Shown here piece after piece: positions 2,238 to 34,866 of a stretch of DNA of 39,128 bases (the first letter of the stretch is position 1; every line of letters starts with the position of its first letter). The notes under the pieces were generated by a model. It worked only from the letters and a program-made list of their open reading frames with translations, did no database searches and was not told the origin of the DNA. A program made the position numbers and the translations under genes. The stretch covers positions 1 to 39,128 of the forward strand of contig JAUYAR010000162.1 in the NCBI GenBank assembly GCA_030693415.1, read 5' to 3'. The DNA is from Candidatus Cloacimonadaceae bacterium. Its GTDB lineage: Bacteria; Cloacimonadota; Cloacimonadia; Cloacimonadales; Cloacimonadaceae.

Positions 2238-4238
2238 TCACTTCTTTAATACGGCTTTTAAAAACCGCTTAAGCGGTACAACATCAATTATCTGTTCTAT
2301 TGATTTGCTATCAAGCATCGAATTTATGCGATAAATAGCTTCAAGATCAAGTTTACGAAAGGAGTTGCCTTTTGTTTTCTTTGAAGAAAGAGCGCTCTGA
2401 TCAATGAACAAATCTTCAATTTCTCCCGACAAAATACATAATCCGTGACGTTGTAAGTAGCTAAGATTCTTGGATAATGAGTACTGAGAAGGAATCCCCC
2501 TAATTTGTCGCGACCTCTTTGCTGTGAAAAAAGTTTCTTCTCTATTTGTTTTTATCCAATTACGAATATCTACGATCAGTTTTTTTACGGTTTTCCCTTT
2601 TTCTTGGAAAGTACAACTTTGTTCAAAAAATTGATCCTGAACAGAAGCGATCGAACTATGGGTTCTTAATTCCGGATTTATTTTGAGGTATTTCTTATGG
2701 TCTCCAGATAAATCACGTAACATAAAGTCAAAATCAGAAATTATATAGCAGCGAGTCTTTGTTTTTAAGACAAGTTCTACCATTGCTTTAATATTATCTT
2801 TCCCGCCCACAGCAATTATTGAAACGTTTTGTTTATCTAATTCCCCGGGATATACTTGATCAGCCACCATTCTAAGTAAGTATCCATCATTACCCTCGCA
2901 TACAATGACCTTTTCTGCAAAGAACAACTCATTTTGGTTGTTATCAAGAAGTAACCTCTTATACTGAGAAATCTGAATTGGAACTGCTTCAGTAGTATGA
3001 TTATCTTTATGAACCATAATGATATTCAGGTCTTTTGTAGTTGTTCTAATGAACTCAGAGCAATGAGTTGTTATAATCACCTGATTTCTGTAATTGTCCA
3101 AAAAATCGTCTAATCTATCGCTAATTACTCTCCTAGCATGAGGATGAAGATAGATCTCTGGTTCTTCAACACACAGTAAAGCAGCGCTTGCGGTATTAAC
3201 ATTCTTAGTATAGTAGTTAAACAATCCAATTACTGCGGCACTTTGAATCCCTGATCCTTTGTCTGTTAACGGAGTATTTATACCGTCGTCTACAAACAAC
3301 TGGCAGCTCTTATATAGATCAGTTTTGCTATCAGCACTAAATCTAATCTGTAGCTGGGTTCCGGGAAAAGCAATGTCTAAGGATGTGTTCTTTATCTCTG
3401 TAGTGACTCCAGCGAATATTTTATTTGCAACGAGTTGTACACGTTCAAGCGCTTTATTCATTTGCGGTGTGATTTTATTTTCCAACAAATGTTTCATTAA
3501 CTTACCAAACCATGTATACGAGGTTAGTCGTAACTGGTTTTGGGGATCACGAAAAGAAGGGATTATAGCACTTTGCATTAACTCATTTCTCACCTGAGCT
3601 TTATAACCCATAACCCAATCATGAGATGAATCCTCTCTAAAAAGAAAACGAATGTCCTTATTAATCTTACCTGATTCGTTGCGTTTAGCCTTAAATAGGT
3701 AAGCAAAATTAGATGTTTCCTTAAATACTTCCTCAAATCGCTTTTGATTATTCAATTTGCTATCAACCCATATTTTACCAGAGCAATCATCTTCAATGTT
3801 GTCGAAAATATTTAGCAAATTGCTAGGGTCTAATCTATAGCGAATAGGTTCCTTTATAGGTTTTTTTTCCTCCCATCGTATTATCTCACCACAGATATTG
3901 AACCCAAAACACTTATTAATACTTGCATAATCTAAATCCTCTAGTTTGTCATCATTCCATTCACTGTCGTGAACTGTTTCTCTAATCAGAATGCAGAATA
4001 TTAGGAGTTCATCTGCAACAGAATCTTTGGATTTATCATAATAGAAATCTCCTTCCGTAACGTTTTCGACCTTGTCCCATGCAGGTGCAGTTTCACTAAG
4101 AACAATATTAAGTGCTTTAATTATATTGCTTTTACCAGCATTGTTTCTACCAATAATTACGTTTTTACCTTTCTCAAACCTTAAATCAAGTTCCTTAATT
4201 GATCTGTAATTTCTAATGTATAGTCTTGATAAGTACAT
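2238..4238 (-). CDS. OLD-family ATPase with TOPRIM nuclease domain
   Basis: This 666-aa protein has the OLD layout. An ABC/SMC-like ATPase has Walker A at residues 30-37 (GRNNAGKS), Walker B around 357 (VEEPEIYLHP) and a switch-like TTHCSEF. A TOPRIM domain follows, with the catalytic Glu at 448 (VCEGNDG), the GGKDNI loop, and the acidic pair D502/D504 (ISDFDF). OLD proteins are ATP-regulated, metal-dependent nucleases used in phage defence (P2 OLD, GajA of Gabija, retron effectors). The start is supported by GAGAGG 7 nt before the ATG. It lies 23 bp after the SF2 helicase stop, so they are probably cotranscribed. The usual class 2 partner, a UvrD-like helicase, is absent; the adjacent helicase is of type III Res type, which makes the pairing unusual. 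Full length with no visible defect. Confidence 0.88.
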   Translation of the reverse strand: MYLSRLYIRNYRSIKELDLRFEKGKNVIIGRNNAGKSNIIKALNIVLSETAPAWDKVENVTEGDFYYDKSKDSVADELLIFCILIRETVHDSEWNDDKLEDLDYASINKCFGFNICGEIIRWEEKKPIKEPIRYRLDPSNLLNIFDNIEDDCSGKIWVDSKLNNQKRFEEVFKETSNFAYLFKAKRNESGKINKDIRFLFREDSSHDWVMGYKAQVRNELMQSAIIPSFRDPQNQLRLTSYTWFGKLMKHLLENKITPQMNKALERVQLVANKIFAGVTTEIKNTSLDIAFPGTQLQIRFSADSKTDLYKSCQLFVDDGINTPLTDKGSGIQSAAVIGLFNYYTKNVNTASAALLCVEEPEIYLHPHARRVISDRLDDFLDNYRNQVIITTHCSEFIRTTTKDLNIIMVHKDNHTTEAVPIQISQYKRLLLDNNQNELFFAEKVIVCEGNDGYLLRMVADQVYPGELDKQNVSIIAVGGKDNIKAMVELVLKTKTRCYIISDFDFMLRDLSGDHKKYLKINPELRTHSSIASVQDQFFEQSCTFQEKGKTVKKLIVDIRNWIKTNREETFFTAKRSRQIRGIPSQYSLSKNLSYLQRHGLCILSGEIEDLFIDQSALSSKKTKGNSFRKLDLEAIYRINSMLDSKSIEQIIDVVPLKRFLKAVLKK

Positions 4239-4261
4239 GCAAAGCCTCTCTGTAAGATAGA

Positions 4262-7200
4262 TTATACTATCAATCTAGTCACACTGTCTATGTAATTATC
4301 ATCTTCCATAAACACTACGTTATTCTTCTGATACTCGTCTGGATCATGCCCGTGGAGTTTAAGCTCTTGTTTGGGAGTCCAGGACAATATCCAGCTACTT
4401 AGAATTACATTTGGATCGGCAAGCCTTGTCTCGATCTCTTTGATGCGCTTGTGGAACTGGATTTTCTCACTATTTACCCCTTCGTGCATCAGACCATGAG
4501 GTTCAATGAAGTGGACATTCTGCTTGCCCTCTGAGAGAACCCAGAGGATAAAATCAGGATGGAAGTTGCCTGCTTCAAAGAAGCCAACTCCCTTACCCCT
4601 GCTAAGATTGCGGAGAAGATATAGCTCCTGTCCCTTATCCTTCATATCTTTCTGATTCTTTTCGCACCATTCTTTAAGGTCAGTAATAAACTGGTATTCG
4701 CTTTCGCCTAAGGAGACTGGCAGGATTGTAATATTCCCACCATGACGTACATGAAACAAGGGTTGGAAAAGATGATTGCCAAAGTTACAGGCTTTGAGAT
4801 CGCCCACATGCAAAAGCTGGTCTTTCTTAGCGATGATCTCATCTTTGAGCTTCTTTATTCCTTCGATTACCTGGATATCATCGCCATCTACAATCAACTG
4901 ATATTCTCGGTCTGAAGGCAGATTGTCGTCATCTGCTGTCAGCTCTCTCAATTCTAACCGAGGTTCTATATAGGACTTTTTGCAGAAGTTATAGTACTTT
5001 TCACTGAAACGCTTTACCAGTTCCGTAGCGATTTGCTGGAGGATAAGCACTTCATCATAGTTCTGGGGAGTGAGTCTCGTTTCCGGTAGAAAGAGCCGAT
5101 ACCAAGACGTATCTGACAACAAGCTGATAATCCCCTGCTTACTGAGATTTAGATTGTGCCAGCTTCGTTCACGTTTGAATCGTTCCAGTTCGAAATACAA
5201 GCGTTCCATGTCCAAAAGACTGATTTGCTTGTTTCTGAGCTTTACCTCGTCTTTTTGTCCATCCTGAAGAGTACCACGTGATTTAATAGTCTGTATCCTG
5301 GGGTACCAGTCTGAAACTACCGGATTGTTTTGCAGGTACTGTGGTATACTGCCAAGGGTAGGTACTGGTCCGTCCTTCTTAAAATCATACTCAGTGCCAT
5401 CTTTCTTCTTTTTCGGTCGTATTATCTTCAGCTTCTTGCCAAAATCAGCGGTTACATTCATTGGGATAGTAATAACCAGCCTTTTCTCGTTGCCAGGCAA
5501 GCCTTCATCACGTAAGAATTGTCTGAACTTATCCATGAAGTCAGCTTCGATGCCAAAGACATTCAGGGTTTCTATATCTTCAATGAATCCGGGCTTCGTG
5601 GTGGCATAAGTATGCCCACTGCGCTTCAGACTCCATTCATAACCTTTTAAGCGCACACCGCGCCCAAATAGCTGGATAATTTGCGTTCCTTCGCTCTTGC
5701 CGACATGCATCAAACCCATGGTACTAACACGCCAGCAATCCCATCCTTCTACGAACTTCTTGGAACCGATCAATAGGTTGATAGGAGATGAGGAATCCTT
5801 TACTGAGGCAAACATCGCTTCTGTGAAGTCGCTGTCGTCCACAGTTAGCTGAACATCATTGTGCTTGGCATATTCTTCTACGTGGTCACAGAGTCCTTTG
5901 GCATCCCCGACATTGATCAAACCAAAGGGTGTGTCGCTATTACCAAGATACAAAGCTACCTCGCCTGAATCTCCTTTGATTCTATCCAATCTTAGCTGAC
6001 CACTGGCAGGATTATTGAACAAGGTTCTCAAGATATCTTGATAAATCTCGGAAGTTCCATTCGTAGCATTAACCGTCTTGAGTAGGTAATTGAAGGAATT
6101 GGCGAAGATATCATTACCATCATAATCCAGCAAACCTGTACTGCTTCCACTTCCGTAAAGAATTTGCTCGATACTACGTTGGAAGACAGGTGCATTGGAA
6201 AGGAATTTAGCGATAAAGACAATAATCTGACCAACATCAGCCAATAACTCCTCACTGGGAAGTTCAACCTCTTGTTTACCCTTTTTCTTGGTAACAGTGC
6301 TACCCACAAAGACCCACAGGGGTTTTTCCAGGTTAAAGGGGACAATATCCAGTTTCTTATCTTCATAAACTTTAAGTTGCTGATAGTATTTGAGCAGACA
6401 TGCAGTCAGATAGACATCCTGCACCTGCTGATAGGTTTTGGGCAGATTCAAGATCTGGTAGTCTTTGCCAAACCCATCTTCGTAAAACCAGCGATAAGAA
6501 TAATCAAAGATCACAGTTTTGGCATAGCTATCCTCAAAAGCTCTGTTATTGGCAGCAGCAACAGCTTGGGCAAAAGTGGCAGAATATTCAAAAGTAAAGC
6601 CCTTGGCACATAGCTCCGACCGTCTGGTGAACCATACACCTTCATCTTTTCCGCTCATCCCCCGGTGACCTTCATCCACCAAAAGCAGGTTTTGATCTCC
6701 CAGGCTTCGGGTGGCGATTGTATTAGGACCTTCGGTATCGCCGAGCTTGGTAATCTCGATCACATCGACCATATCAATACTGCCGTCTTGTTTGGTCTTT
6801 AGTCTTTGGGCTGAATAGAAACCGCTAATCTTAAGCTCTTCCAAATGCTGCTCACTAAGCCGTTCATTGGGGCTAAGCAAGATAACTCTGGAAATCTCGC
6901 TGCCCTCACGAGTCTTTTTGGCATAATGCCGGAACTGCAAGAGGTTCACATGCATCAAGAGGGTCTTACCGCTTCCCGTAGCATTTTGCAGACAGAGCTT
7001 ATTTAGATCATCAAATGAGTATGGCTCAAGGTTCTGAAAGCCAGTCCACTTTTCATTAAACCGCTTAAGATAGACATTCAAATCTTCCAGCAGCTTTGCT
7101 TTATCGGTAAAATAGCGATCCAGATAGATTTCCACAAACAGCAGGGTTAGCCATTGAAAGTACTTCCAGACAATAGGACGACTGCGTAAGTAGTTAATCG

Positions 7201-7495
7201 TTCTGGTATGCGAGACGATGTTTTCCTCATAGATGCGTAGCTGCTCTTTGCTGATGGGATGGAACTGATTGTAAAAGAGTTCACTGTTCACCAGTTCATG
7301 GTAAAAACGGTGTAAACCGTCAGCATCATAACCCTCCAGACGGCTATCCCTGATCGGTGCTGCCAGCTTGTGAAAGGGTTTAGTATTATCCTTATACTCC
7401 AAGAGCGGATCAATCCCAAATTGACTCATCAGCCACTGGTTAAGGAGCAGTTTATTGGTGAATTTATGGTTATGCAATGTAGCTTTACGAGCCAT
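4262..7495 (-). CDS. SF2 helicase / type III Res-like restriction subunit
   Basis: This 1077-aa DEAD/DEAH-box (type III restriction Res-like) protein carries Walker A ATGSGKT with K177, a DEGH box at 274, and motif VI QLFGRGVRL at 608. The C-terminal 130 residues look like a PD-(D/E)XK nuclease: PDFILW with D981, then FIEPHGL with E998, where the canonical Lys is His1000. I start it at the ATG at 7495, because GGGAG precedes it by about 9 nt and it shares one base with the TAA of the upstream GTPase gene (TAATG). A longer in-frame start at 7510 lacks such support. No Mod methyltransferase lies nearby, so it is not a complete type III restriction system. Probable role: ATP-driven DNA translocation or cleavage in defence. 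Confidence 0.85.
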   Translation of the reverse strand: MARKATLHNHKFTNKLLLNQWLMSQFGIDPLLEYKDNTKPFHKLAAPIRDSRLEGYDADGLHRFYHELVNSELFYNQFHPISKEQLRIYEENIVSHTRTINYLRSRPIVWKYFQWLTLLFVEIYLDRYFTDKAKLLEDLNVYLKRFNEKWTGFQNLEPYSFDDLNKLCLQNATGSGKTLLMHVNLLQFRHYAKKTREGSEISRVILLSPNERLSEQHLEELKISGFYSAQRLKTKQDGSIDMVDVIEITKLGDTEGPNTIATRSLGDQNLLLVDEGHRGMSGKDEGVWFTRRSELCAKGFTFEYSATFAQAVAAANNRAFEDSYAKTVIFDYSYRWFYEDGFGKDYQILNLPKTYQQVQDVYLTACLLKYYQQLKVYEDKKLDIVPFNLEKPLWVFVGSTVTKKKGKQEVELPSEELLADVGQIIVFIAKFLSNAPVFQRSIEQILYGSGSSTGLLDYDGNDIFANSFNYLLKTVNATNGTSEIYQDILRTLFNNPASGQLRLDRIKGDSGEVALYLGNSDTPFGLINVGDAKGLCDHVEEYAKHNDVQLTVDDSDFTEAMFASVKDSSSPINLLIGSKKFVEGWDCWRVSTMGLMHVGKSEGTQIIQLFGRGVRLKGYEWSLKRSGHTYATTKPGFIEDIETLNVFGIEADFMDKFRQFLRDEGLPGNEKRLVITIPMNVTADFGKKLKIIRPKKKKDGTEYDFKKDGPVPTLGSIPQYLQNNPVVSDWYPRIQTIKSRGTLQDGQKDEVKLRNKQISLLDMERLYFELERFKRERSWHNLNLSKQGIISLLSDTSWYRLFLPETRLTPQNYDEVLILQQIATELVKRFSEKYYNFCKKSYIEPRLELRELTADDDNLPSDREYQLIVDGDDIQVIEGIKKLKDEIIAKKDQLLHVGDLKACNFGNHLFQPLFHVRHGGNITILPVSLGESEYQFITDLKEWCEKNQKDMKDKGQELYLLRNLSRGKGVGFFEAGNFHPDFILWVLSEGKQNVHFIEPHGLMHEGVNSEKIQFHKRIKEIETRLADPNVILSSWILSWTPKQELKLHGHDPDEYQKNNVVFMEDDNYIDSVTRLIV

Positions 7496-8235
7496 TAGTT
7501 TTGCTCCCACATCCGTTTCATAAACTCCCGATGCCTTGGATTGGATACACCAAGACCTGGCAAATCCACAAGTACAATTCTGGGATCAATGCTTTCTTTG
7601 ACATGTTGAACGTTAATATCTACCTTGTCCACGAATAGAATATCGTCATTATCCTCAGCGACGTAATTACCTAACTCATCGATGGGTATAAACACATCAG
7701 GTCTTTTGTTCTCCCAGCCATTTAACAACTTTTTGAACTCATCAAATAACTTCGTATCTGATTTACTCAACTCGGTAGCTTTTTTCTTTTGCCTATCTAA
7801 CTCTGCGACTTGTTCATCCAATGATTTGCCTTCTAATGATTCCTTGAGCTTCTTCAGACCATATTGTTTTGTTATCTCATCGATGTACAGATCCCTTAAT
7901 TGATTCTTGGCTGCGACATTCAGGAATGAGACCTTAGCAGCCTTATCTGCTTCGACATTATCTCTGAACCTGATAAACGTGGGGACTGCTGTTGTTGCTT
8001 TCGCGGATTCTGGTAGTAACTCCATTTCAAGCAGAGCATTAATCAGCGTTGATTTTCCGGAAGAGAAAGAACCCAAGAAAACGATGTTGAACTCAGGATT
8101 CTTCAGCTTGTTAACGAGAGCTTTTTTCCCGAAGACAAAAGTAGCTAAATCTTCATCTACATTTACGTACCTTTGTAAATTGCGGACTGACGAAAGCAAT
8201 TCGTCTAGTCGTTTTGCCATGTTCTCAGTTTTCAT
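7495..8235 (-). CDS. Truncated dynamin-like GTPase
   Basis: This 246-aa protein keeps the N-terminal half of a bacterial dynamin-family GTPase. It has the P-loop at residues 55-63 (GSFSSGKST), a G2 threonine in KATTAVPT, and the G3 box DLPGLG at 224. It stops 19 residues after G3, at WEQN. The G4 (N/TKxD) motif and the membrane-binding and GED-like helices that normally follow for several hundred residues are missing. Residues 110-180 are helical and charged. The start has AGGAG 7 nt before the ATG. The TAA overlaps the helicase ATG, so the truncation ends exactly at the helicase translation signal. It is either a deletion remnant or a deliberately short form; hydrolysis by this fragment alone seems doubtful. 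Confidence 0.75.
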   Translation of the reverse strand: MKTENMAKRLDELLSSVRNLQRYVNVDEDLATFVFGKKALVNKLKNPEFNIVFLGSFSSGKSTLINALLEMELLPESAKATTAVPTFIRFRDNVEADKAAKVSFLNVAAKNQLRDLYIDEITKQYGLKKLKESLEGKSLDEQVAELDRQKKKATELSKSDTKLFDEFKKLLNGWENKRPDVFIPIDELGNYVAEDNDDILFVDKVDINVQHVKESIDPRIVLVDLPGLGVSNPRHREFMKRMWEQN

Positions 8236-26990: not shown

Positions 26991-27033
26991 TGAGAATGAG
27001 ACGCAATTTTGTAGGAGTAGCCATTTCTGTCAA
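26991..27033 (-). promoter_or_regulatory. Promoter and putative Fur operator of fur-feoBA
   Basis: A perfect -35 TTGACA (27033-27028, minus strand) is followed by TACAAAAT (27013-27006) as a poor -10. Directly downstream, at 26991-27000, lies GAGAATGAG, the same half-site word found before feoB but in the opposite orientation. Its position between the -10 and the start codon fits repression by Fur (autoregulation). Confidence 0.45.
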
Positions 27034-27093
27034 GAGAGAAATCGCGGGAGAGTGAGCTTGTCCGGGTGAACAGGTGAATATAAACCCTCAAGT

Positions 27094-27300
27094 AAAACTT
27101 CAAATTTGATCACCAAAACTTCAAATGGAGGGAAAGTGGGAATTATTATAGGCTGTTGCTGACGAGTTTTAATCACCAATTCTTCAAATTTAATCACCGT
27201 TTCTTCAAATTTGATCACCAAAACTTCAAGCTTTTATCACCGAAAGCTTCAAGCTTTTATCACCAATTCTTCAAATTTAATCACCAAAACTTCAAATAGG
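27094..27300. repeat. Iteron array, 21-23-bp units (CTTCAAATTT-ATCACC)
   Basis: CTTCAA starts at 27098, 27119, 27182, 27203, 27224, 27247, 27269 and 27290. The 63-bp gap after 27119 is exactly three 21-bp periods and includes a decayed unit near 27161 (TTTTAATCACC kept). Consensus is CTTCAA(AT/GC)TT(T/A)(G/A/T)ATCACC plus 4 variable bases. There are no unique spacers of CRISPR length. The array lies between the chromosomal fur operon and the phage genes. It resembles protein-binding iterons such as transposase-end, partition or replication sites. Confidence 0.8.
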
Positions 27301-27315
27301 CTTTTTGTAAGCTAT

Positions 27316-27352
27316 AAAAAAACCGTGGGGAGCACCGGGCGGTGTCCCCACG
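27316..27352 (-). terminator. Strong terminator of the phage late operon
   Basis: On the minus strand CGTGGGGACACC pairs with GGTGCTCCCCACG (one bulge, 12-bp stem, tetraloop-size loop; 27352-27324), followed directly by GGTTTTTTT. It is the first good leftward terminator after the tail genes, so it likely ends the late transcript before the iteron array. Confidence 0.8.
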
Positions 27353-27536
27353 TCTCGGAGGGCATTCTATGTAGGGTCTGTAGGCTAATGAACATATACT
27401 TGAAGCCATTATTTATGTCAAGAAACATAATCGTATCTTTCTTATCATATTGTGCAGAAAGGACTTGACCACGGTTGCGATAGTTGTTGTGTAGAAACCA
27501 TAAATCAACAGTCGGGTAACCGAGAAGGAGATCAAG

Positions 27537-27866
27537 ATGACCAAGCAAAATCAGAAAGGCAAAGGCAAGGCAACGCTGGAGGAGATGGTGCAATCAGGCG
27601 GTCAGATCGTACTATTGAGAGAGGATGGCACTGAACAGGCAATCGAAGAGATTATCGATAATCAAACACCTACAACAGATGATCCATTCGCTAATGAGTT
27701 CCACTACAAGAGCTGGTGGAATCAGTTCCGGGGACCCTGGCTGCAGTCCGAGAAGATGACTATTGAAGAGATCAAGATCAAAGCCGATGATGCCTGGGAA
27801 TGCAGTGATTACAAAGAAGTCATTAATCTGATGGCTGAGCTGATCTGCAGACTCGAACAGAAGTAG
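27537..27866 (+). CDS. Small acidic protein, opposite-strand phage accessory gene
   Basis: A 109-aa protein, not recognised. The start is clear: GAGAAGGAG lies 6 nt before the ATG. It has a basic N-terminal tail (about 1-12), a segment QSGGQIVLLREDGTEQAIEE that resembles a small beta-hairpin, then an acidic helical C-terminal half (TIEEIKIKADDAWE). No membrane segment. It is transcribed against the phage late operon and has its own perfect terminator, like a moron cassette. A TTGACC (27465-27470) could be the -35, but no convincing -10 follows. It may be expressed in the lysogen. Confidence 0.75.
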   Translation: MTKQNQKGKGKATLEEMVQSGGQIVLLREDGTEQAIEEIIDNQTPTTDDPFANEFHYKSWWNQFRGPWLQSEKMTIEEIKIKADDAWECSDYKEVINLMAELICRLEQK

Positions 27867-27881
27867 GTTCTTTATCTGACA

Positions 27882-27910
27882 AGATACCCGGTTCTGCCGG
27901 GTATCTTTCT
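27882..27910 (+). terminator. Terminator of the 27537-27866 gene
   Basis: A perfect 10-bp inverted repeat AGATACCCGG (27882-27891) / CCGGGTATCT (27897-27906) with loop TTCTG, followed by TTCTT on the plus strand. It lies 15 bp after the plus-strand stop. The minus-strand side lacks a T-run, so it should not stop the tail operon. Confidence 0.85.
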
Positions 27911-27927
27911 TGGGCTGGTTTGGGTGA

Positions 27928-28584
27928 TTAGTAGGGTAATGCCAGCAATTGATATTTAGCTGCGGGTGCACCGAAAAACTGTCCTATGCCTAAGGTAACG
28001 ATTGTCTGAGTTCCCTCAAATTTGATGTCTGAGACAAACAGAAAACAGTTGCACTGGTTGGTCAGGATGATGTGTGGAATGGTCTCGTAGTCCTTATCCA
28101 GCCTGTGCGAGATAAGCGTATCTGATCTGAGATCGGCAGGGCTGCTCTGTGTTCTGTCACCCACTCCTCTATTCTGATCTTGAAGCTCATGAGCTATATT
28201 GGATAGTGTGAATGTGCTGAAACCTAAGTGTTGAGCCAAGACTGAACCGTTAGCAAGCTTATTTCCGGTTACTACTCCATTGAGAATGTGATTACCATAG
28301 ATACAATCATTTTGCAGACCTCTGGCATCGAGTTTACCAACCGTGCAAGTTTTACCTGAGAATGAGCCATTGGGATCAACCTTGTTGTCCCAGATCTCAT
28401 AGAAACCCCAGTCACGTTCTAAGAGGGTATCCGTTTCATAATAGCCTGAGCCGGATGGGTTCTCAAGAACCTTGATGCCGTTAGCAAAGGTGCCGCCGGG
28501 TCTGACCAGTCTGATGGTCACTCCGGTTAAGGGGATGCGGTTAGCTGCGCTCATGATGTAGTAGCTGATTCCAAATCTATACAT
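27928..28584 (-). CDS. Phage tail-tip / fibre-like protein
   Basis: This 218-aa protein is probably the last structural protein of the late operon. AAGGAG is 7 nt before the ATG. Residues 1-85 form a beta-rich domain with PLTGVTIRLVRPGG and GSGYYETDTL, similar in style to baseplate-attachment domains. A linker NGVVTGNKLANGSVLAQHL follows, as often found before fibre trimer stalks. The C-terminal domain (about 160-218: TIPHIILTN, FLFVSDIKFEGT) looks like a beta-sandwich receptor-binding head. Assignment as receptor-binding or tail tip protein rests on position and sequence style, not on a named family. Confidence 0.6.
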   Translation of the reverse strand: MYRFGISYYIMSAANRIPLTGVTIRLVRPGGTFANGIKVLENPSGSGYYETDTLLERDWGFYEIWDNKVDPNGSFSGKTCTVGKLDARGLQNDCIYGNHILNGVVTGNKLANGSVLAQHLGFSTFTLSNIAHELQDQNRGVGDRTQSSPADLRSDTLISHRLDKDYETIPHIILTNQCNCFLFVSDIKFEGTQTIVTLGIGQFFGAPAAKYQLLALPY

Positions 28585-28616
28585 GTCTGCTCCTTGTATT
28601 TATGGTGTTTATTATG

Positions 28617-29054
28617 TTATAGAAAGACGCTTTCGTTTTCGTCTAAGGTATGGATGTAATCAAAGCTGATGGTGGTGAGTTCGCCGGTGTATCTTGATTC
28701 CAGAGATACCTTAATCTTCTCGGGATACTCATGCAGATCATCAGGCATCTTAGGCAGTTGAGTGATGGTTACGGGAAACTGCCTGATTAATGTACCGAAC
28801 ATAGTGAACTCGATATAGAACTTGCCGGGAACAGTCAGGAAGTATAGAAAAGCGCTGTACTCTTCCGGTCTAAGCACCGCTTCGATGTTGATGGCATCTT
28901 CCCGATACGGTTCTCTTTGGTGTATATATGTGGGATCATAGGCATTCTTCTTCTCGATGCGGTATTTGAGTTTGGGAACATATTCCACCTGCCCGTTCTC
29001 GCAGGTATAGAAGCTATTGCCACTGCCGGTTCTGATCATGCGAAAGCCTTTCAT
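28617..29054 (-). CDS. Phage tail/baseplate component
   Basis: A 145-aa protein, family not recognised. I start it at the ATG at 29054, which overlaps the upstream stop as ATGA; a GTG at 29063 is possible. The content is mainly beta strands (FRMIRTGSGNSFYT; YSAFLYFLTVPGKFYIEFTMFG; KIKVSLESRYTG). No membrane segment. Its place between the large baseplate-like gene and the fibre-like gene suggests a distal tail role. Confidence 0.6.
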   Translation of the reverse strand: MKGFRMIRTGSGNSFYTCENGQVEYVPKLKYRIEKKNAYDPTYIHQREPYREDAINIEAVLRPEEYSAFLYFLTVPGKFYIEFTMFGTLIRQFPVTITQLPKMPDDLHEYPEKIKVSLESRYTGELTTISFDYIHTLDENESVFL

Positions 29055-30532
29055 ATCAACCACGCCTTTACTTTGTATTCATCATTTGCATAGTTACGCT
29101 CCAGTTCGGTAATGGCATAGACCTTGGTCTTGATCCTGATCTTGGATTGGAGACTAAGGCTGTATTTGGACAATTGGTCTATTACGGCTTCAATGCTCCA
29201 CTTGGAGTCATAGAAGTCCATCAGATAGGGCTGGATGATGCCTTGCAGTTGAGTGGTGTCTCCTGCCAGGATGTCGATGGTTTTGATATCCGGCTTTTCC
29301 TGATTGCCACGTTTTGAAAGAAAGGCTACGACATCGGTGTCCGCTATATCTATAATAGAAGTGGAGTAGGCATCCTTGTTCTTGAGAATGATTGAACCGG
29401 ATGTATTGGTGAATACAGTGGCATTTAAGAGTATCAACATGGCCTGCAGAGCTTTCAAGTTATCGGTCTGCTCAGCCTGGTTGGTCTCGTAAGACTTGCC
29501 GGGCTGCAGTTTGGTAGGCATGATATTGCCATGAAAATGAGCTTCCACCCAGAGATTAACCGCGTGGCTGCTGCCATAGTTGCATTGACCCAAAGTGCCG
29601 GTACTGGTAAGTGTATTCAATTGGGCTTCTGAGATACCGTTATCATTAAAGAAGCTGAGCAGTTCATTATAGGCATTATCCAAAGAAGTGAGACTGTCCT
29701 CCCAGCCGGTCTTTTCGTCATACTCCTCTATCACGGGACAGATGTTGTTATAGAACTTGTATATCCTGCCCCGATAGCGACCCTGATATCTGGTGGTGGC
29801 AGGATTGGGATAGGTAGCTTGGATAATCTTTTTATAGGCAAAGATAAAAGTGATTTTGTTACTTGGCGTATCGACCCGGTAACCGTATTTCGGTGCCAGC
29901 CACCCGGAGCTATGATAGCTGTAAGTCCAACCACCGGGAGGATTAGGAAAGGCAAGCAAGTCGTCAAAGCCGACGTGGGCTATGGTTAGCATATTACCCG
30001 TGCTGATGTTAAGAGTGGGAATGGAGAACTGATTATTGTAAGGGATGGATATCGGAATAGTCTGCTGGATGTCCTGCAGAAAGTAACCGAGTAACCAGAT
30101 GGGCTGATAACCTGCAGTCAGGCTGTAATAATGCGTCAGGTCGGAATAGACAGATAACAGCTTGATCTTATCATAACAGGTCAGTTTCAGGATACCAGTG
30201 CTGACGTCAAAGCTCAATTGCGAGGTATCGATTATCCCCGTAAAAAACAGAGCATTATCCCGATATACTTTCACTTCATAGTGGGAGATATACCGCTCAT
30301 GCTCGTTGCTCCCGGACAGGATGTTGGCACTTAACCAAGTAGTCGGGAAACACTCAAAGATGAGTCGTTTAGGTTCCCGGCTGTAGTTGGATACGGTCTG
30401 CAGCTTATCAGCAGAGACCGACAGACTGATGATGGCTCGACTTGCAGCGGTATCAGTCAGACTGTGCTTTACCTGATTATAGTCAGAAGCATTGGTCTTA
30501 CCTTGAATGAAGTCTATCCTAAATATGTTCAT
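29051..30532 (-). CDS. Phage baseplate hub / tail-associated protein
   Basis: This 493-aa protein starts at the ATG at 30532 (GTG at 30541 also in frame); no clear ribosome site precedes it, perhaps because the opposite-strand gene was inserted just upstream. Residues 85-135 hold a pattern common in phage baseplate-hub/protein-D-like proteins: HYEVKVYRDNALFFTGIID followed by LKLTCYDKIKLLS. The C-terminal 100 residues return to short beta strands (SIEAVIDQLSKYSLSLQSKIRIKTK). It probably forms the tail hub through which DNA and the tape measure pass. Specific family assignment is uncertain. Confidence 0.65.
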   Translation of the reverse strand: MNIFRIDFIQGKTNASDYNQVKHSLTDTAASRAIISLSVSADKLQTVSNYSREPKRLIFECFPTTWLSANILSGSNEHERYISHYEVKVYRDNALFFTGIIDTSQLSFDVSTGILKLTCYDKIKLLSVYSDLTHYYSLTAGYQPIWLLGYFLQDIQQTIPISIPYNNQFSIPTLNISTGNMLTIAHVGFDDLLAFPNPPGGWTYSYHSSGWLAPKYGYRVDTPSNKITFIFAYKKIIQATYPNPATTRYQGRYRGRIYKFYNNICPVIEEYDEKTGWEDSLTSLDNAYNELLSFFNDNGISEAQLNTLTSTGTLGQCNYGSSHAVNLWVEAHFHGNIMPTKLQPGKSYETNQAEQTDNLKALQAMLILLNATVFTNTSGSIILKNKDAYSTSIIDIADTDVVAFLSKRGNQEKPDIKTIDILAGDTTQLQGIIQPYLMDFYDSKWSIEAVIDQLSKYSLSLQSKIRIKTKVYAITELERNYANDEYKVKAWLI

Positions 30533-30578
30533 GCTTGACACAATCGGCTTAATATCAAGATTGAGTTACGAGGTAAAA

Positions 30579-31118
30579 ATGAGCAGAAAAACCATTTATA
30601 GTGAGATCGAAAGTCCTTTGTCCTACGATGATTGGCAACCGGTATGTCCAATTGGGGAATATCGAATAATTTATCCAAATGAATATCCTCCATTGAGCCA
30701 GAGTAAATTATTAGCAAAAGCTCCCTGTGCCGTGGTTGCTTGTTCAGGTAGTTTAGGTTTTGTTTCGTATATTTTTCAATTGTACCGACCTGATCGTGAA
30801 AAGGGTAAGTATGTGATAGATGAGCACCAGTATGTTTGCTGTTATAACACAACAACTCGTGAGTCAGCATCTGGGTATATTCATCATGCTGATTATGCTG
30901 AACGCACCTATAGTATTGATCAGAAGATGGTAAGTTATTTAACGGGAAGTAGTAGCCTTCCAGTAATATTTCCAACCAAAGTTCCACCAACAAGTGGATC
31001 ATTAGATGAGTTGAGGCAGTTAGGAAGAATAGACGGTCTCGATTTCTGTTATGAGTATGGGTATTCGCAATCAGTAAAAAAAGGAATTGTTGAGCCATTA
31101 CCTATACCTCAGACCTGA
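30579..31118 (+). CDS. Opposite-strand accessory gene in the tail module (179 aa)
   Basis: A 179-aa protein, not recognised. GAGG 5-6 nt before the ATG at 30579 supports this start over an upstream in-frame ATG. A TTGACA lies at 30535-30540, without a clear -10. It contains several Cys and Tyr clusters (APCAVVACSGSLG; HQYVCCYNT) and a C-terminal YEYGYSQSVKKG; no membrane segment or signal peptide. It sits alone on the plus strand between the tape measure and baseplate genes, and its end overlaps the tape measure stop by 17 bp. It is more AT-rich than the structural genes. This is the classic placement of a moron, often defence, exclusion or anti-defence, but the function is unknown. Confidence 0.7.
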   Translation: MSRKTIYSEIESPLSYDDWQPVCPIGEYRIIYPNEYPPLSQSKLLAKAPCAVVACSGSLGFVSYIFQLYRPDREKGKYVIDEHQYVCCYNTTTRESASGYIHHADYAERTYSIDQKMVSYLTGSSSLPVIFPTKVPPTSGSLDELRQLGRIDGLDFCYEYGYSQSVKKGIVEPLPIPQT

Positions 31119-33723
31119 TCTGCTTACCGGTATCGGCAATCTCACTGACCCGCACAGGATCGTTAGACAGCGGATCGACATTGATCTCAATAATGGACTT
31201 GCTGTCTTTGATATTCTGCTTCATCTCAACAACCTGATCCCGCAAATCGCCCATAATATCCAAGAGCGCATTTATACTGCCATTGCTACTAATACTGCCA
31301 CCTGAGCCGTAATATGAGCCGACACTGGCAGGCAGTGGGACACTCGGCATCTGCAGTCCGGCAAAGGCAAGCTTCACCTGACTAAGCGGTGCGAAGTTGA
31401 GGAAGTCGAATATGCCTCTGCCCAAGGTTTTTACTCTGTCCTTGGCAGTGATGTACTCGTCACCTTCGGCTTCGATGATGATCCCACCATTTTTATGGGA
31501 ATTACCGATTAAGAGACCTCCGGTTGCTGCCTTGGGCGGTTCAGTGGATTGGATAACGGCGATATTGGCAAGTCCGGCGCCTATTGCTGCGGCTGCTGCA
31601 GTTACTGCCAGTCCGGGTCCTACTACGGGAATACCCACCATAGACTTATAGGCAGCGGTGGCAGAGGCGTATGTATCGATCATTGCTTGTCCGATTGCCA
31701 GGGTTTTCCAGAGCGCAAAGCCTTTCTTGCCGAAGATCTCGGATGCTTTGGCAAGGTCTCGCATGATCTGTTGAGCACCCTGCAGGTTCCGCATCTCATA
31801 GTCATTTCTAATCCGAGCCTTGGCTGCTTCACTCTGAACCGTGATCTGCTGCTCGGTAAGACCTGCTGCGATGAGTTTATCCTTCTTCTTGGCATAGTAG
31901 TTGTCAATGGCATCCAGCTCGGCTTGATAGGTATTGCCTGCTAAATCCAGACTCCTCTGAGCAAACTCATAGCGTGTATCTTCCAATTCCTGAGCCTTGC
32001 GTTTCTCTTCCTCGGCAATCCGCTGCTTTTCCTTCTGCTCAATCTCAGCCTGACGAACTCTTTGAGCAGAAGCATCAGCCTCCACCTTAGTAATCTCTTT
32101 GGCATAGTAACTGCTGATATTGGTAAGAACAGTCTCAGATGCATTGAGTGATCTGGCTTTCTCCAACTCGGCATCCCGCTGGATTGACAGTTCCCGTTGC
32201 CTGCGAGCCACCGCATCATCTATGGACAGGGTGTCATACTTCTGTTGAAGTGATTGCAGAGCATCGAGGTCTCTTTGCTTGGCTTGGACAAGCTGCTGTT
32301 CAAATCCCTTGATACGTTCCAGAGTGGATATCTGCTCATCGGCATTCAGGGCAGTTACGGCTCCCAGTGCTTTATAATGCTGTTTGGTGTATTCGAGTTT
32401 ATACTCAAGCAGTGCTATACCGGTTAAGGTAGCCTCGGTCTCGATCCTCACCTTTTCTTTGTTGAACTCGGCTCTGGCTTTGCTGTCCTCAACCGCTATC
32501 TTTTTAGCTAACTCAGCCGCTTCAATGGTGCGCTCTTTCTGCCTGTCGAAGTAATCGGAACTGACGATAACCAGACCGGTCTGCATCTTCTTGACCGTAT
32601 CCTCATAGTCAGCCATCTCCTTCTTGATCTCACCCAATCTTCGTTTAGCTTCTGCATAGTCGATGCTAAAGGCGATCTCCCGATGCTTGGCGACTAAGGA
32701 CTCCACACTTACCGCTGTCTTATCCACCGAATCCTTATACTCATCTTGCGTTTCCATTGCTGCTTGATTGGCTAATTGTGTGGAAGCATAGGCAAAGCCG
32801 AGTCCGGCAACCGCTCCCACCGCCAGACCGATAATCCCGGCAACGGGATTGATGGCTATCTTCAAAGCATGATAAGCAGCAGTCAGAGTGATCACTGCTG
32901 TGGTCACAGTTCCTATCACAGGTATGGCAATTAGCAGACCGGTAACAAAGCCTTTCATAATGGGAGATAGGTTCTGATAGCCTTCCATCAACCAGCGCAG
33001 ACCCTGAAGCAGAGGAGTGATCAGAACATTGAGCATATCACCGATCGTCTCTTTGATATCTCCCCAGGCATTGGCATTCTGCAAACGCAGATCAGCCAGA
33101 GCGATAGCTGTACCGCCATAGTCCTCGCCAAGTTTCTCCACCAGATAGGATACACCTTCAGTCTTGAGCCGGGTATCATCAAGCTCAATGCCATAGCGAC
33201 CAAGCATTTCAGTATGTCCATTCAGAGCCCGACCCATGAGATCAAAGGCACTCTCCACACTCATCCCGGTGGCTTTATTGGCTTCGGTAAAGTCCAGCAG
33301 CAGTGGCACAAGCTGTTGTATCTCATCCTTGTTCAGTTTGAAGGTCTGCGAGAGTTTGGACATCAGAGCCAGCAGTTGATCATCTTCGAAGTTGGTCAAT
33401 GACTGCATGGCAGAGGCAAACTCTCCCATCACAGCAGCAGCTTCACCGAAGGCTATCTTAGCCAAAGTAACCGCTTGTCTCTGAGCCAGTGATGCATCCA
33501 ACAATCCATTCATAGAACGCACCAGACCACCGACCACCTGGATCACTCCATCGACTGCAATCTTCACATCACGAATGGTAGCCAGAGCCTGTTCTGCCGA
33601 TATCTTAACCGCAGCAGGTTTCTCCACCACAGACTGGGTGGACTCCGCCTCCTGCTTGATTTCAGCAAGCTTGAGATTGGCATCGTCAGTGACGAGGATG
33701 AGTTTGAAAGTTAGGTCAGGCAT
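31102..33723 (-). CDS. Phage tail tape measure protein
   Basis: This 873-aa protein starts with TAGGAG 5-6 nt before the ATG. Layout: an N-terminal helical region, a conserved-looking block about 130-240 (MGRALNGHTEMLGRYGIELDD, typical of tape measure proteins), a hydrophobic membrane-active stretch about 250-330 (GLLIAIPVIGTVTTAVITL; GIIGLAVGAVAGLGF), then long charged coiled coils about 350-640. A second Gly/Ala hydrophobic region (about 690-730) and a glycine-rich turn (GGLLIGNSHKNGG) follow. The protein sets tail length and helps DNA injection. It follows the tail chaperone and methyltransferase genes, and its length suggests a tail of moderate size. Confidence 0.9.
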   Translation of the reverse strand: MPDLTFKLILVTDDANLKLAEIKQEAESTQSVVEKPAAVKISAEQALATIRDVKIAVDGVIQVVGGLVRSMNGLLDASLAQRQAVTLAKIAFGEAAAVMGEFASAMQSLTNFEDDQLLALMSKLSQTFKLNKDEIQQLVPLLLDFTEANKATGMSVESAFDLMGRALNGHTEMLGRYGIELDDTRLKTEGVSYLVEKLGEDYGGTAIALADLRLQNANAWGDIKETIGDMLNVLITPLLQGLRWLMEGYQNLSPIMKGFVTGLLIAIPVIGTVTTAVITLTAAYHALKIAINPVAGIIGLAVGAVAGLGFAYASTQLANQAAMETQDEYKDSVDKTAVSVESLVAKHREIAFSIDYAEAKRRLGEIKKEMADYEDTVKKMQTGLVIVSSDYFDRQKERTIEAAELAKKIAVEDSKARAEFNKEKVRIETEATLTGIALLEYKLEYTKQHYKALGAVTALNADEQISTLERIKGFEQQLVQAKQRDLDALQSLQQKYDTLSIDDAVARRQRELSIQRDAELEKARSLNASETVLTNISSYYAKEITKVEADASAQRVRQAEIEQKEKQRIAEEEKRKAQELEDTRYEFAQRSLDLAGNTYQAELDAIDNYYAKKKDKLIAAGLTEQQITVQSEAAKARIRNDYEMRNLQGAQQIMRDLAKASEIFGKKGFALWKTLAIGQAMIDTYASATAAYKSMVGIPVVGPGLAVTAAAAAIGAGLANIAVIQSTEPPKAATGGLLIGNSHKNGGIIIEAEGDEYITAKDRVKTLGRGIFDFLNFAPLSQVKLAFAGLQMPSVPLPASVGSYYGSGGSISSNGSINALLDIMGDLRDQVVEMKQNIKDSKSIIEINVDPLSNDPVRVSEIADTGKQIRSEV

Positions 33724-33799
33724 AAACTCCTATTGAAAAATCAATTGACAATTTGTGATACTTCAAAAAGTAAGTTCAAAAAAATCACATGGAGATTAC

Positions 33800-34096
33800 A
33801 TGCTTAAAAAAGGTGACCAAATGGACTACTTCATTATTGAAGTAGGTGGAATTCGTTATGACATTAGTGGATATTGTTGGCTCGATGATTCTGATTCTGA
33901 TACTGTTGTTGAACATGATATGTGGGTTCATCAAAATGGTAGACCGGTTAATCCGATTATTCCGGTTTTCAAGATGGATGACCTTGCTTTGATGAACTTG
34001 CAAGTGGCAAGCAACAGTGTAAAAATAAGTATGCTGCAAGACTTAGTTGATAAGGCTTTTGGGACTACTAATACGCAGTTCATAGTAATTCAATAA
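33800..34096 (+). CDS. Opposite-strand accessory gene (98 aa)
   Basis: A 98-aa protein, not recognised. GGAG 5 nt before the ATG at 33800 selects this start. A TTGACA at 33745-33750 is followed 20 bp later by TAAGTT, a weak promoter candidate. The protein is acidic and compact, with VGGIRYDISGYCWLDDSDSD and a C-terminal helix MLQDLVDKAFG. It lies on the plus strand between the tape measure and the methyltransferases, and its stop overlaps the methyltransferase stop by 7 bp. AT-rich compared with its neighbours. Likely a moron expressed in the prophage state; an immunity or anti-restriction role is only a guess. Confidence 0.7.
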   Translation: MLKKGDQMDYFIIEVGGIRYDISGYCWLDDSDSDTVVEHDMWVHQNGRPVNPIIPVFKMDDLALMNLQVASNSVKISMLQDLVDKAFGTTNTQFIVIQ

Positions 34097-34866
34097 TTCC
34101 TAATCAGCAGCTCAGTCTCAGTCTGGAACGCACCGGAGACGGTGTATTGCGCTTCGACTTCATCAATGGTGAAGCCTTGGTAGAGTGTGCGGATGTAAGG
34201 GTCGTTGTTGTAGGATAGCAGGAACTTCCCATTGATGTTCTTAAGTGCGGCTGCAAGCTCTTCATGCTTAGTGAAGGCATCTGCGTCTTCTCTATCGTAT
34301 AAATGCTCCTTTGTATAGTAGGGTGGATCGAGGTAAAAGAAGGTGTTGGGTGTATCAAAGCGGGCGATGATCTTCTCAAAGTCCTGCTTTTCGATAATCA
34401 CCTGCTTGAGCCGTTCCGAGGCTGCTTTCACCTTCTCCAGATTACGCAGAGGCATATACTTGTAACCCTGCATGATGCAGAAGTTCTTTGATCTTGAGCC
34501 GTAGGAACAGGACAACTGGAAGTAGAAACGGATGGCTCGTTCCAGTTCCGTTTTAGGTGGGTGTGCTGCGAAACTGTCGAACATCTCTCTGGATACGAGG
34601 TATTGATTAAGTTCGGTCACAAACGCTTCAGGGTGCTGTTTGACATACTTCCAGAAGTTCACCAGATCACCATTGATATCGTTAAAGACTTCTGTGTATC
34701 TGCTCTTAGGGTTGGTCTGCCAGTCTTCCTTCTTAGGTGACTTCCCGAATAGTATCCAGGCAGCGCCGCCAAAGACTTCACAGTAGATGTCATGTTTGGG
34801 GATGAGCGGCAGTATCTTCTTTCGTAAGAGACGCTTGCCACCCACCCAGGAGATAATGCTGTTCAC
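34090..34866 (-). CDS. D12-class (Dam-type) DNA adenine methyltransferase 2
   Basis: This 258-aa N6-adenine methyltransferase has the SAM-binding motif I CEVFGGAAW (about 29-37), an N-terminal WVGGKRLLRKKI and the catalytic motif IV LDPPYY. The helical target-recognition region (about 95-165) is intact in length. Enzymes of this class modify GATC or related sites; the specificity is not predictable here. It starts with GTG, sharing TGA with the stop of the first methyltransferase (GTGA), with GGGGGA upstream. It is a diverged paralog of that neighbour. It sits inside the tail module, before the tape measure, an unusual position for a phage methyltransferase. Confidence 0.92.
   Translation of the reverse strand: MNSIISWVGGKRLLRKKILPLIPKHDIYCEVFGGAAWILFGKSPKKEDWQTNPKSRYTEVFNDINGDLVNFWKYVKQHPEAFVTELNQYLVSREMFDSFAAHPPKTELERAIRFYFQLSCSYGSRSKNFCIMQGYKYMPLRNLEKVKAASERLKQVIIEKQDFEKIIARFDTPNTFFYLDPPYYTKEHLYDREDADAFTKHEELAAALKNINGKFLLSYNNDPYIRTLYQGFTIDEVEAQYTVSGAFQTETELLIRNY

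What the first reader, a model, noticed from the sequence alone, without database searches (positions are those of the whole stretch)
27465..34096. Three opposite-strand moron-like genes in the tail module
Genes at 27537-27866, 30579-31118 and 33800-34096 face against the late operon and have good ribosome sites. Each follows a TTGACA/TTGACC about 45-75 bp upstream, and all encode unrecognised small soluble proteins. Two are squeezed between structural genes with tail-to-tail overlaps of 17 and 7 bp, and one has its own terminator. Such sites are where prophages keep superinfection-exclusion, defence or anti-defence genes.
Basis: partly seen in the sequence, partly recalled or inferred. Interest (0 to 1): 0.62.

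Follow-up and report, generated by a model that had tools for sequence, protein, structure and literature searches.

The report
Swappable single-gene slot in Mu-like prophages
A Mu-like prophage in an uncultured Cloacimonadota-type bacterium carries three genes facing against its late genes; one sits at a spot where closely related phages swap in one unrelated small gene after another, each with its own promoter, while the other two are a rare insert and an old, widely kept gene at the phage's end.

Summary
In detail: three opposite-strand genes with ribosome sites, -35-like hexamers and the stated 17/7-bp overlaps. The element is the right part of a Mu-like transposable prophage. The three genes are not equivalent.

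ORF3 (33800-34096) occupies a real moron slot between a D12 methyltransferase and the tape-measure gene (TMP). It is 2 bp when empty (5 phages). Otherwise it holds one gene: 37 distinct cassettes fall into about 28 unrelated families, and 35 face against the late genes. Of 172 phage pairs with near-identical flanks, 157 carry unrelated cassettes. TTGAC precedes 31 of 34 cassettes (2.0 expected) and is absent when the slot is empty. In the window's own genome, six related prophages show four different genes, one broken copy and one empty slot.

ORF2 (30579-31118) fills a slot that is almost always empty (3 of 125 genomes).

ORF1 (27537-27866) is not a swapped moron: it is conserved (22 of 50 genomes, dN/dS 0.15) and lies at the phage's right end, divergent from a small-RNA-like gene. 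It can be lost.

Lysogenic-conversion or defence genes remain the best reading for ORF2/ORF3, by precedent (Tab in Mu-like phage JBD26). Function is untested. Known kind, unusually clear case.

The parts
33800..34096 (+). ORF3, 98 aa, acidic (pI 4.4), no detectable homologue; occupant of the hypervariable slot 3
   Evidence: Only 1 of 125 phylum genomes has it; no family hit; GC 0.367 against 0.45-0.52 in late genes; weak, not significant likeness to the 91-aa cassette of sister prophage C91 (z 2.8)
33745..33750 (+). -35 box TTGACA of ORF3; 49 bp between it and the ATG. The -10 is weak; an alternative is TTGAAA 33733 with extended GATACT
   Evidence: Sequence; same element in 31 of 34 slot-3 cassettes; scan
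30579..31118 (+). ORF2, 179 aa; occupant of slot 2 (between TMP and T496)
   Evidence: Homologues at 31-36% identity in the same slot in G014:C20 and G039:C309 only; GC 0.391; pS saturated with pN about 0.45
30535..30540 (+). -35 box TTGACA of ORF2, 2 bp beyond the T496 start codon
   Evidence: Sequence; the homologous cassettes have TTGACT (L113) and TTGCCA (L075) at the same place
27537..27866 (+). ORF1, 109 aa; conserved right-end gene, convergent with the last tail gene
   Evidence: 22 of 50 family genomes, 16 matched stretches in the own genome; 27-sequence alignment with invariant YxxWWNxxRxxWLxS...DDAWExxDYKExINxMAExICRL; median dN/dS 0.15; lost in both G001 copies
27438..27536 (+). conserved about 100-bp promoter/5'UTR block of ORF1 (TTGACC 27465-27470; TCGG-GTAA-CCGA mini-hairpin before the RBS)
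   Evidence: 87-92% identical in most of the own-genome copies, 84% in one
27881..27907 (.). hairpin terminator between convergent ORF1 and T218
   Evidence: Sequence
27312..27386 (-). small-RNA-like unit divergent from ORF1: invariant 32-nt 5' part plus terminator hairpin; its -35 TTGACA is 27421-27416
   Evidence: 14-sequence alignment, 6 of 13 pairs with changes on both sides; no Rfam match
27098..27297 (.). six 21/22-bp repeats, likely transposase binding sites of the phage right end; phage end at about 27080
   Evidence: lineage-specific versions end other copies
31102..33723 (-). tape measure protein (TMP), flank of slots 2 and 3
   Evidence: PHROG tape measure 1.8e-10
34090..34866 (-). 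MT1, D12-class N6-adenine methyltransferase, flank of slot 3
   Evidence: Pfam PF02086 5.4e-27
29051..30532 (-). T496, late protein of the tail region, no family match; flank of slot 2
   Evidence: Conserved in synteny in relatives
27928..28584 (-). T218, last late gene, flank of slot 1
   Evidence: Conserved in synteny

Best explanation
The window's right part is the right half of a Mu-like transposable prophage whose late genes run on the minus strand and are presumably silent in the lysogen. ORF3 is the current occupant of a dedicated single-gene moron slot between the D12 methyltransferase and TMP. Cassettes at this slot consist of a sigma70-type promoter whose -35 usually abuts the TMP start codon, an RBS and one ORF whose 3' end usually reaches or slightly overlaps the methyltransferase stop. 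[Shown:] cassettes of about 28 unrelated families replace one another between phages with near-identical flanks, and the slot can be empty. [Inferred:] exchange is by homologous recombination in the conserved flanking genes between co-resident or superinfecting Mu-like phages. [Inferred from promoter and orientation:] the genes are transcribed from the repressed prophage, antisense to the late operon, and act as lysogenic-conversion genes. For ORF2 and ORF3 the likeliest job is to block competing phages (superinfection exclusion or defence; about 50%), otherwise anti-host-defence or another host benefit. ORF2 is the same kind of insert at a slot rarely used. ORF1 belongs to the phage's own right-end module (ORF1 and a divergent small-RNA-like unit next to the transposase-site repeats), kept by purifying selection but dispensable; most likely a small phage regulatory or lysogeny-maintenance protein rather than swapped cargo.
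For: Mu-like identity in relative G046: Mu transposase C domain, MuB/TniB-like ATPase, Phage_Mu_F, terminase and portal. Slot 3 is 2 bp when empty and 221-975 bp when filled; single opposite-strand ORF in 35 of 37 distinct fillings. Swapping: 157 of 172 pairs with MT1 >=90% and TMP N-terminus >=85% have unrelated cassettes. Promoter: TTGAC in 31 of 34 (2.0 expected, maximum 8 in 2000 shuffles). TTGAC antisense to the 30 bp before TMP: 30 of 38 with a cassette, 0 of 5 empty, 0 of 2 with a same-strand cassette, 2 of about 280 before other late genes. The -35 tracks the cassette's ATG (sd 4.7 bp), not TMP's ATG (sd 14.3), and TATAATG-like -10 scores exceed all 3000 shuffles. Lower GC of ORF2/ORF3. 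ORF1 conservation. Precedent in Mu-like phage JBD26: Tab, 83 aa, minus strand in the late region, own promoter, expressed from the prophage (PMC10884400). Other cargo of these phages includes type I and type IIG restriction-modification.
Against: No expression data. ORF3's own -10 is poor, and -10 hexamers alone do not beat shuffles (p=0.08). ORF3 has no homologue, so its coding nature rests on RBS, position and analogy. No terminator is visible for ORF2 or ORF3. No family or structure match links any of the three genes to defence. The slot also carries CrcB with a fluoride riboswitch, so cargo is not only defence.
Confidence: 0.8

Rival explanations
1. The slot-3 and slot-2 genes are anti-host-defence or lytic-phase accessory genes (anti-restriction, anti-CRISPR, takeover), made on infection rather than in the lysogen.
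For: Anti-CRISPR genes occupy variable loci of Pseudomonas Mu-like phages (PMC4378225); many cassettes are small acidic proteins; these phages also carry two D12 methyltransferases.
Against: A dedicated sigma70-type promoter facing against the late operon suits expression in the silent prophage; no anti-defence family matched; the CrcB/fluoride-riboswitch cassette is a host-benefit gene.
Confidence: 0.25
2. The upstream TTGACA is a signal of the late gene (TMP/T496), for example for its translation or transcription, and the opposite ORFs are by-products.
For: In about 26 cassettes the motif lies 5-9 bp from the TMP start codon.
Against: Absent from empty slots (0 of 5), from slots with a same-strand cassette (0 of 2) and from other late genes (2 of about 280); when the distances diverge, the motif keeps its distance to the cassette ATG, not to TMP.
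Confidence: 0.03
3. All three are ordinary fixed phage genes.
For: True in large part for ORF1: conserved, purifying selection.
Against: Slots 2 and 3 are empty or filled differently in nearly all relatives.
Confidence: 0.05
4. ORF1 and the divergent small RNA act together as an addiction or immunity module of the right end (protein plus RNA).
For: Divergent promoters in one short interval in at least 13 copies; invariant RNA core; clean loss of ORF1 in G001.
Against: The RNA unit occurs without ORF1 (L086; host locus L158 in front of a peptidase gene) and ORF1 without it (L131, L135, L136).
Confidence: 0.12

Closest known systems
Tab of Pseudomonas Mu-like phage JBD26 (PMC10884400)
   Same: Small gene on the minus strand, wedged between late genes of a Mu-like phage, own promoter, absent from close relatives with >90% identical flanking genes
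   Different: Tab sits between small and large terminase and comes with anti-Tab on the late strand; proteins not shown to be related; host is Pseudomonas; function shown for Tab, not here
Regions of genomic plasticity in Pseudomonas aeruginosa Mu-like phages (PMC4378225)
   Same: Fixed loci holding mostly one variable small ORF, lower GC, core flanks; some encode anti-CRISPRs
   Different: Here one site shows about 28 families with an almost fixed promoter layout; different host phylum
Lambdoid morons, e.g. HK97 gp15 (cited in PMC10884400)
   Same: Single gene with own promoter between two genes adjacent in relatives; prophage-expressed superinfection exclusion
   Different: Classic morons have their own terminator; slot 2/3 cassettes show none and run into the antisense of the neighbouring gene
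CrcB fluoride channel with crcB riboswitch (Pfam PF02537, RF01734)
   Same: Actual occupants of slot 3 in L054 and L086
   Different: On the late strand; unrelated to ORF3

Membership tests
Moron (ORF3) | Inserted between two genes that are adjacent in related phages | tested here: met
   Empty slot is 2 bp in 5 phages, including own-genome copy C118
Moron (ORF3) | Own promoter | tested here: met
   TTGACA conserved across unrelated cassettes and absent from controls; ORF3's own -10 is weak
Moron (ORF3) | Own terminator | tested here: not met
   ORF3 stop overlaps the MT1 stop; no terminator-like hairpin at its 3' end. So 'moron-like cassette' is the exact claim
Moron (ORF3) | Nucleotide composition unlike neighbours | tested here: met
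   GC 0.367 against 0.476-0.500 for its flanks
[quoted passage not shown]
   Needs RNA-seq and phenotype tests
Moron (ORF2) | Inserted between adjacent genes | tested here: met
   Usual TMP/T496 junction is a 4-bp overlap or up to 38 bp; filled only in window, L144/L075 and L113
Moron (ORF2) | Own terminator | tested here: not met
   Stop overlaps TMP by 17 bp; no terminator seen
Moron / swapped accessory gene (ORF1) | Variable content at the site among relatives | tested here: not met
   One family only, with occasional loss
Mu-like transposable phage | DDE transposase with Mu C domain plus MuB-like ATPase, Mu-type head genes | tested here: met
   In syntenic relative G046; the window is cut at its right edge and lacks these genes itself
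Superinfection exclusion / known defence system | Match to a known family | tested here: not met
   PADLOC, Pfam, NCBIfam negative; Foldseek E>0.04 throughout
Superinfection exclusion / known defence system | Blocks other phages when expressed | not testable with these tools
   Needs phage challenge

The most novel reading that the evidence does not exclude
The methyltransferase-TMP slot is a dedicated, rapidly traded phage-warfare slot of Mu-like phages in this bacterial family, and most of its about 28 families, ORF3 included, are undescribed superinfection-exclusion or defence genes. Several related prophages in one cell would give the host a combined arsenal.
Probability: 0.4. Interest if true: 0.75.

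Novelty: new member of a known kind. Interest (0 to 1): 0.5.

Why it matters
A short, exactly bounded slot with a recognisable promoter lets one harvest candidate lysogen-benefit genes mechanically: take whatever lies between the D12 methyltransferase stop and the TMP start. About 28 families, nearly all without annotation, come from a bacterial group for which a search of the held papers turned up no dedicated study of its phages (titles and abstract starts only). If several block other phages, the slot is a ready source of new exclusion or defence genes, and the polylysogenic host becomes a natural test of combined prophage immunity.

Tried and rejected
Plain promoter/terminator consensus scan: no more hits than shuffles, so the case rests on comparison. 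ORF2 in IMG/VR by single sequence: none; by profile: one, L162, the same contig as L075; in phage records: none. AlphaFold of ORF1 (pLDDT 63) and ORF2 (pLDDT 71) gave no significant fold match. Relation of ORF3 to other small cassettes (L133, L051): not significant. The cyclase-like reading of the ~250-310-aa slot-3 family (conserved MLDxLG, SDT, RGAIS.G) rests on motif resemblance only; no Pfam, PADLOC or PDB hit. I first took the ~27320-27390 repeat to be host DNA next to the phage end; repeats further out show it lies inside the phage's right end in most copies.
Full report
What is there. The window is one whole contig (C162) of a 2.8-Mb draft genome; related records are titled Cloacimonetes/Cloacimonadota. 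Bases up to about 27080 are host (FeoB, FeoA, Fur and others); from there to the right edge lies the right part of a prophage with late genes on the minus strand: major capsid/protease fusion, small proteins, two D12 methyltransferases (MT2, MT1), tape measure protein (TMP), T496, T148, T218. The three genes of the finding are at the stated places on the plus strand, with ribosome sites, -35-like hexamers and the stated overlaps. None matches a known family at E<=0.001.

What the element is. Capsid and tail proteins led to 44 related viral contigs and to prophages in 21 of 50 family genomes, many in the window's own genome. In a complete relative (G046) the left part encodes a Mu transposase C-terminal domain, a MuB/TniB-like ATPase and a Mu F-like protein, with terminase, portal and endolysin. 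It is a Mu-like transposable phage.

Slot 3 (ORF3). I measured the gap between MT1 stop and TMP start in all relatives. It is 2 bp in five phages, including own-genome copy C118, and 221-975 bp in the rest. By my count the fillings comprise 37 distinct cassettes: 35 are a single gene facing against the late operon; two are CrcB fluoride channels on the late strand with a fluoride riboswitch above the gathering score. All-against-all BLAST gives about 28 families. Among 172 pairs of phages with MT1 at least 90% and the TMP N-terminus at least 85% identical, 157 carry unrelated cassettes, 10 are filled against empty, 5 share a cassette. In the window's genome six copies can be read: ORF3 (C162), a 91-aa gene (C91), a membrane protein (C27), a cyclase-like gene (C43), a broken cyclase-like gene (C16) and empty (C118).

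The promoter. TTGAC stands upstream of 31 of 34 slot-3 cassettes (25 as TTGACA); shuffles give 2.0, at most 8. The antisense of the 30 bp before TMP holds it in 30 of 38 slots with a cassette, 0 of 5 empty, 0 of 2 CrcB slots, and in 2 of about 280 upstream regions of other late genes. Its distance to the cassette's ATG is tight (median 49, sd 4.7 bp), that to TMP's ATG is not (sd 14.3). A TATAATG-like -10 at 15-18 bp exceeds all 3000 shuffles, with G at one column in 19 of 32; this heptamer was chosen after looking at the same sequences, so it is descriptive. The bare hexamer alone was not significant (p=0.08), and ORF3's own -10 is poor.

Slot 2 (ORF2). TMP and T496 normally overlap by 4 bp or lie up to 38 bp apart. 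Only the window, G014:C20 (with viral contig L075) and G039:C309 have an insert, always the same family at 31-36% identity, with TTGACA, TTGCCA or TTGACT directly beyond the T496 start codon. ORF2 is therefore a rare insert of the same build. Its predicted fold (pLDDT 71) matches nothing significantly.

Slot 1 (ORF1). ORF1 is found in 22 of 50 family genomes, with 16 matched stretches in the own genome, is under purifying selection (median dN/dS 0.15), and has 30 invariant positions across 27 sequences. It faces the last tail gene where that is present. No other gene was seen to replace it: copies without it either show a deletion between RBS and terminator (both G001 prophages) or run from T218 straight into the end repeats or the RNA unit. 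ORF1 is a near-core, dispensable gene of the right end and not a swapped moron. Its upstream 100 bp are conserved, and a small-RNA-like unit is transcribed divergently from it.

How it most likely works. Shown: positions, orientation, promoter conservation, swapping, conservation of ORF1. Inferred: expression from the silent prophage, exchange by homologous recombination in the conserved flanks, benefit to lysogen and phage. For ORF2 and ORF3 I put exclusion or defence against other phages at about 50%, anti-host-defence at about 25%, other host benefit for the rest. The closest precedent is Tab of Mu-like phage JBD26, a minus-strand gene with its own promoter inside the late region that blocks tail assembly of invaders (PMC10884400); variable single-gene loci are known in Pseudomonas Mu-like phages (PMC4378225). 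Relatives of this phage carry type I and type IIG restriction-modification genes in another slot.

Membership and novelty. ORF3 meets the moron criteria of insertion between adjacent genes, own promoter and different composition; it does not meet 'own terminator'; expression could not be tested. I therefore call it a moron-like cassette: a new member of a known kind. What stands out is the number of families at one short site and their presence side by side in one genome.

In passing. The right ends of these phages lie at a near-constant distance upstream of outward host promoters: 18 of 25 copies have TTGACA within 110 bp beyond the last end repeat, 17 of them at 36-60 bp, against 0.77 expected in that stretch by shuffling. 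Near-identical phages L049 and L067 sit at different sites yet both precede a TTGACA. A fixed-distance target (55-61 bp from a REP-like motif) is reported for Pseudomonas phage Ab30 (PMC5977238), where the word promoter does not occur. This may deserve its own study.

Noticed in passing
window 27033-27100 and right ends of 25 related copies: Mu-like prophage right ends sit about 36-60 bp upstream of outward-facing host TTGACA promoters in 17 of 25 copies (18 of 25 within 110 bp, 0.77 expected by shuffling), including near-identical phages at different sites: possible insertion targeted to a fixed distance upstream of promoters.
   Followed up: partly
window 27312-27421, minus strand: Small-RNA-like unit: TTGACA promoter at fixed spacing, invariant 32-nt core AGCCTACAGACCCTACATAGAATGCCCTCCGA, terminator hairpin with compensatory changes; in many phage right ends and once in the host in front of an M14-type peptidase gene (L158). 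No Rfam match.
   Followed up: partly
window 27098-27297: Six 21/22-bp repeats (TTTGAAGNNNNNGTGATNAAA type) with lineage-specific versions at the ends of relatives: likely transposase binding sites.
   Followed up: partly
L153 9046-12946; L155 3488-11371: A second cargo slot of these phages (between the endolysin gene and the Mu F-like/terminase genes) holds a type IIG restriction-methyltransferase with an HNH protein, or a complete type I restriction-modification system.
   Followed up: partly
slot 3 of L032, L048, L112, L115, L135; broken in L136: Recurrent ~250-310-aa cassette family with class III nucleotide cyclase-like motifs (MLDxLG, SDT, RGAISxG), weak match to phrog_23933, no Pfam or PADLOC hit; could be tested as a signalling or defence cyclase.
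   Followed up: partly
L054 15334-15879, L086 1297-1798: Phage-borne CrcB fluoride channel with a fluoride riboswitch in the moron slot.
   Followed up: yes
window 2238-8235, minus strand: Host cluster of an OLD/GajA-like ATPase, a type III restriction enzyme-like helicase and a LeoA-like dynamin fragment: probable defence island.
   Followed up: partly
L036 after 20875: The T218/right-end region is followed by what looks like a group II intron with maturase.
   Followed up: no
L138 1627-1977: A truncated ORF1 runs directly into a Mu gp30-like gene: internal deletion or assembly join in one own-genome copy.
   Followed up: no
TMP positions about 343-480 in relatives: The middle of the tape measure protein is highly variable between phages whose ends are conserved, as expected if TMP is a target of exclusion proteins such as Tab.
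   Followed up: no
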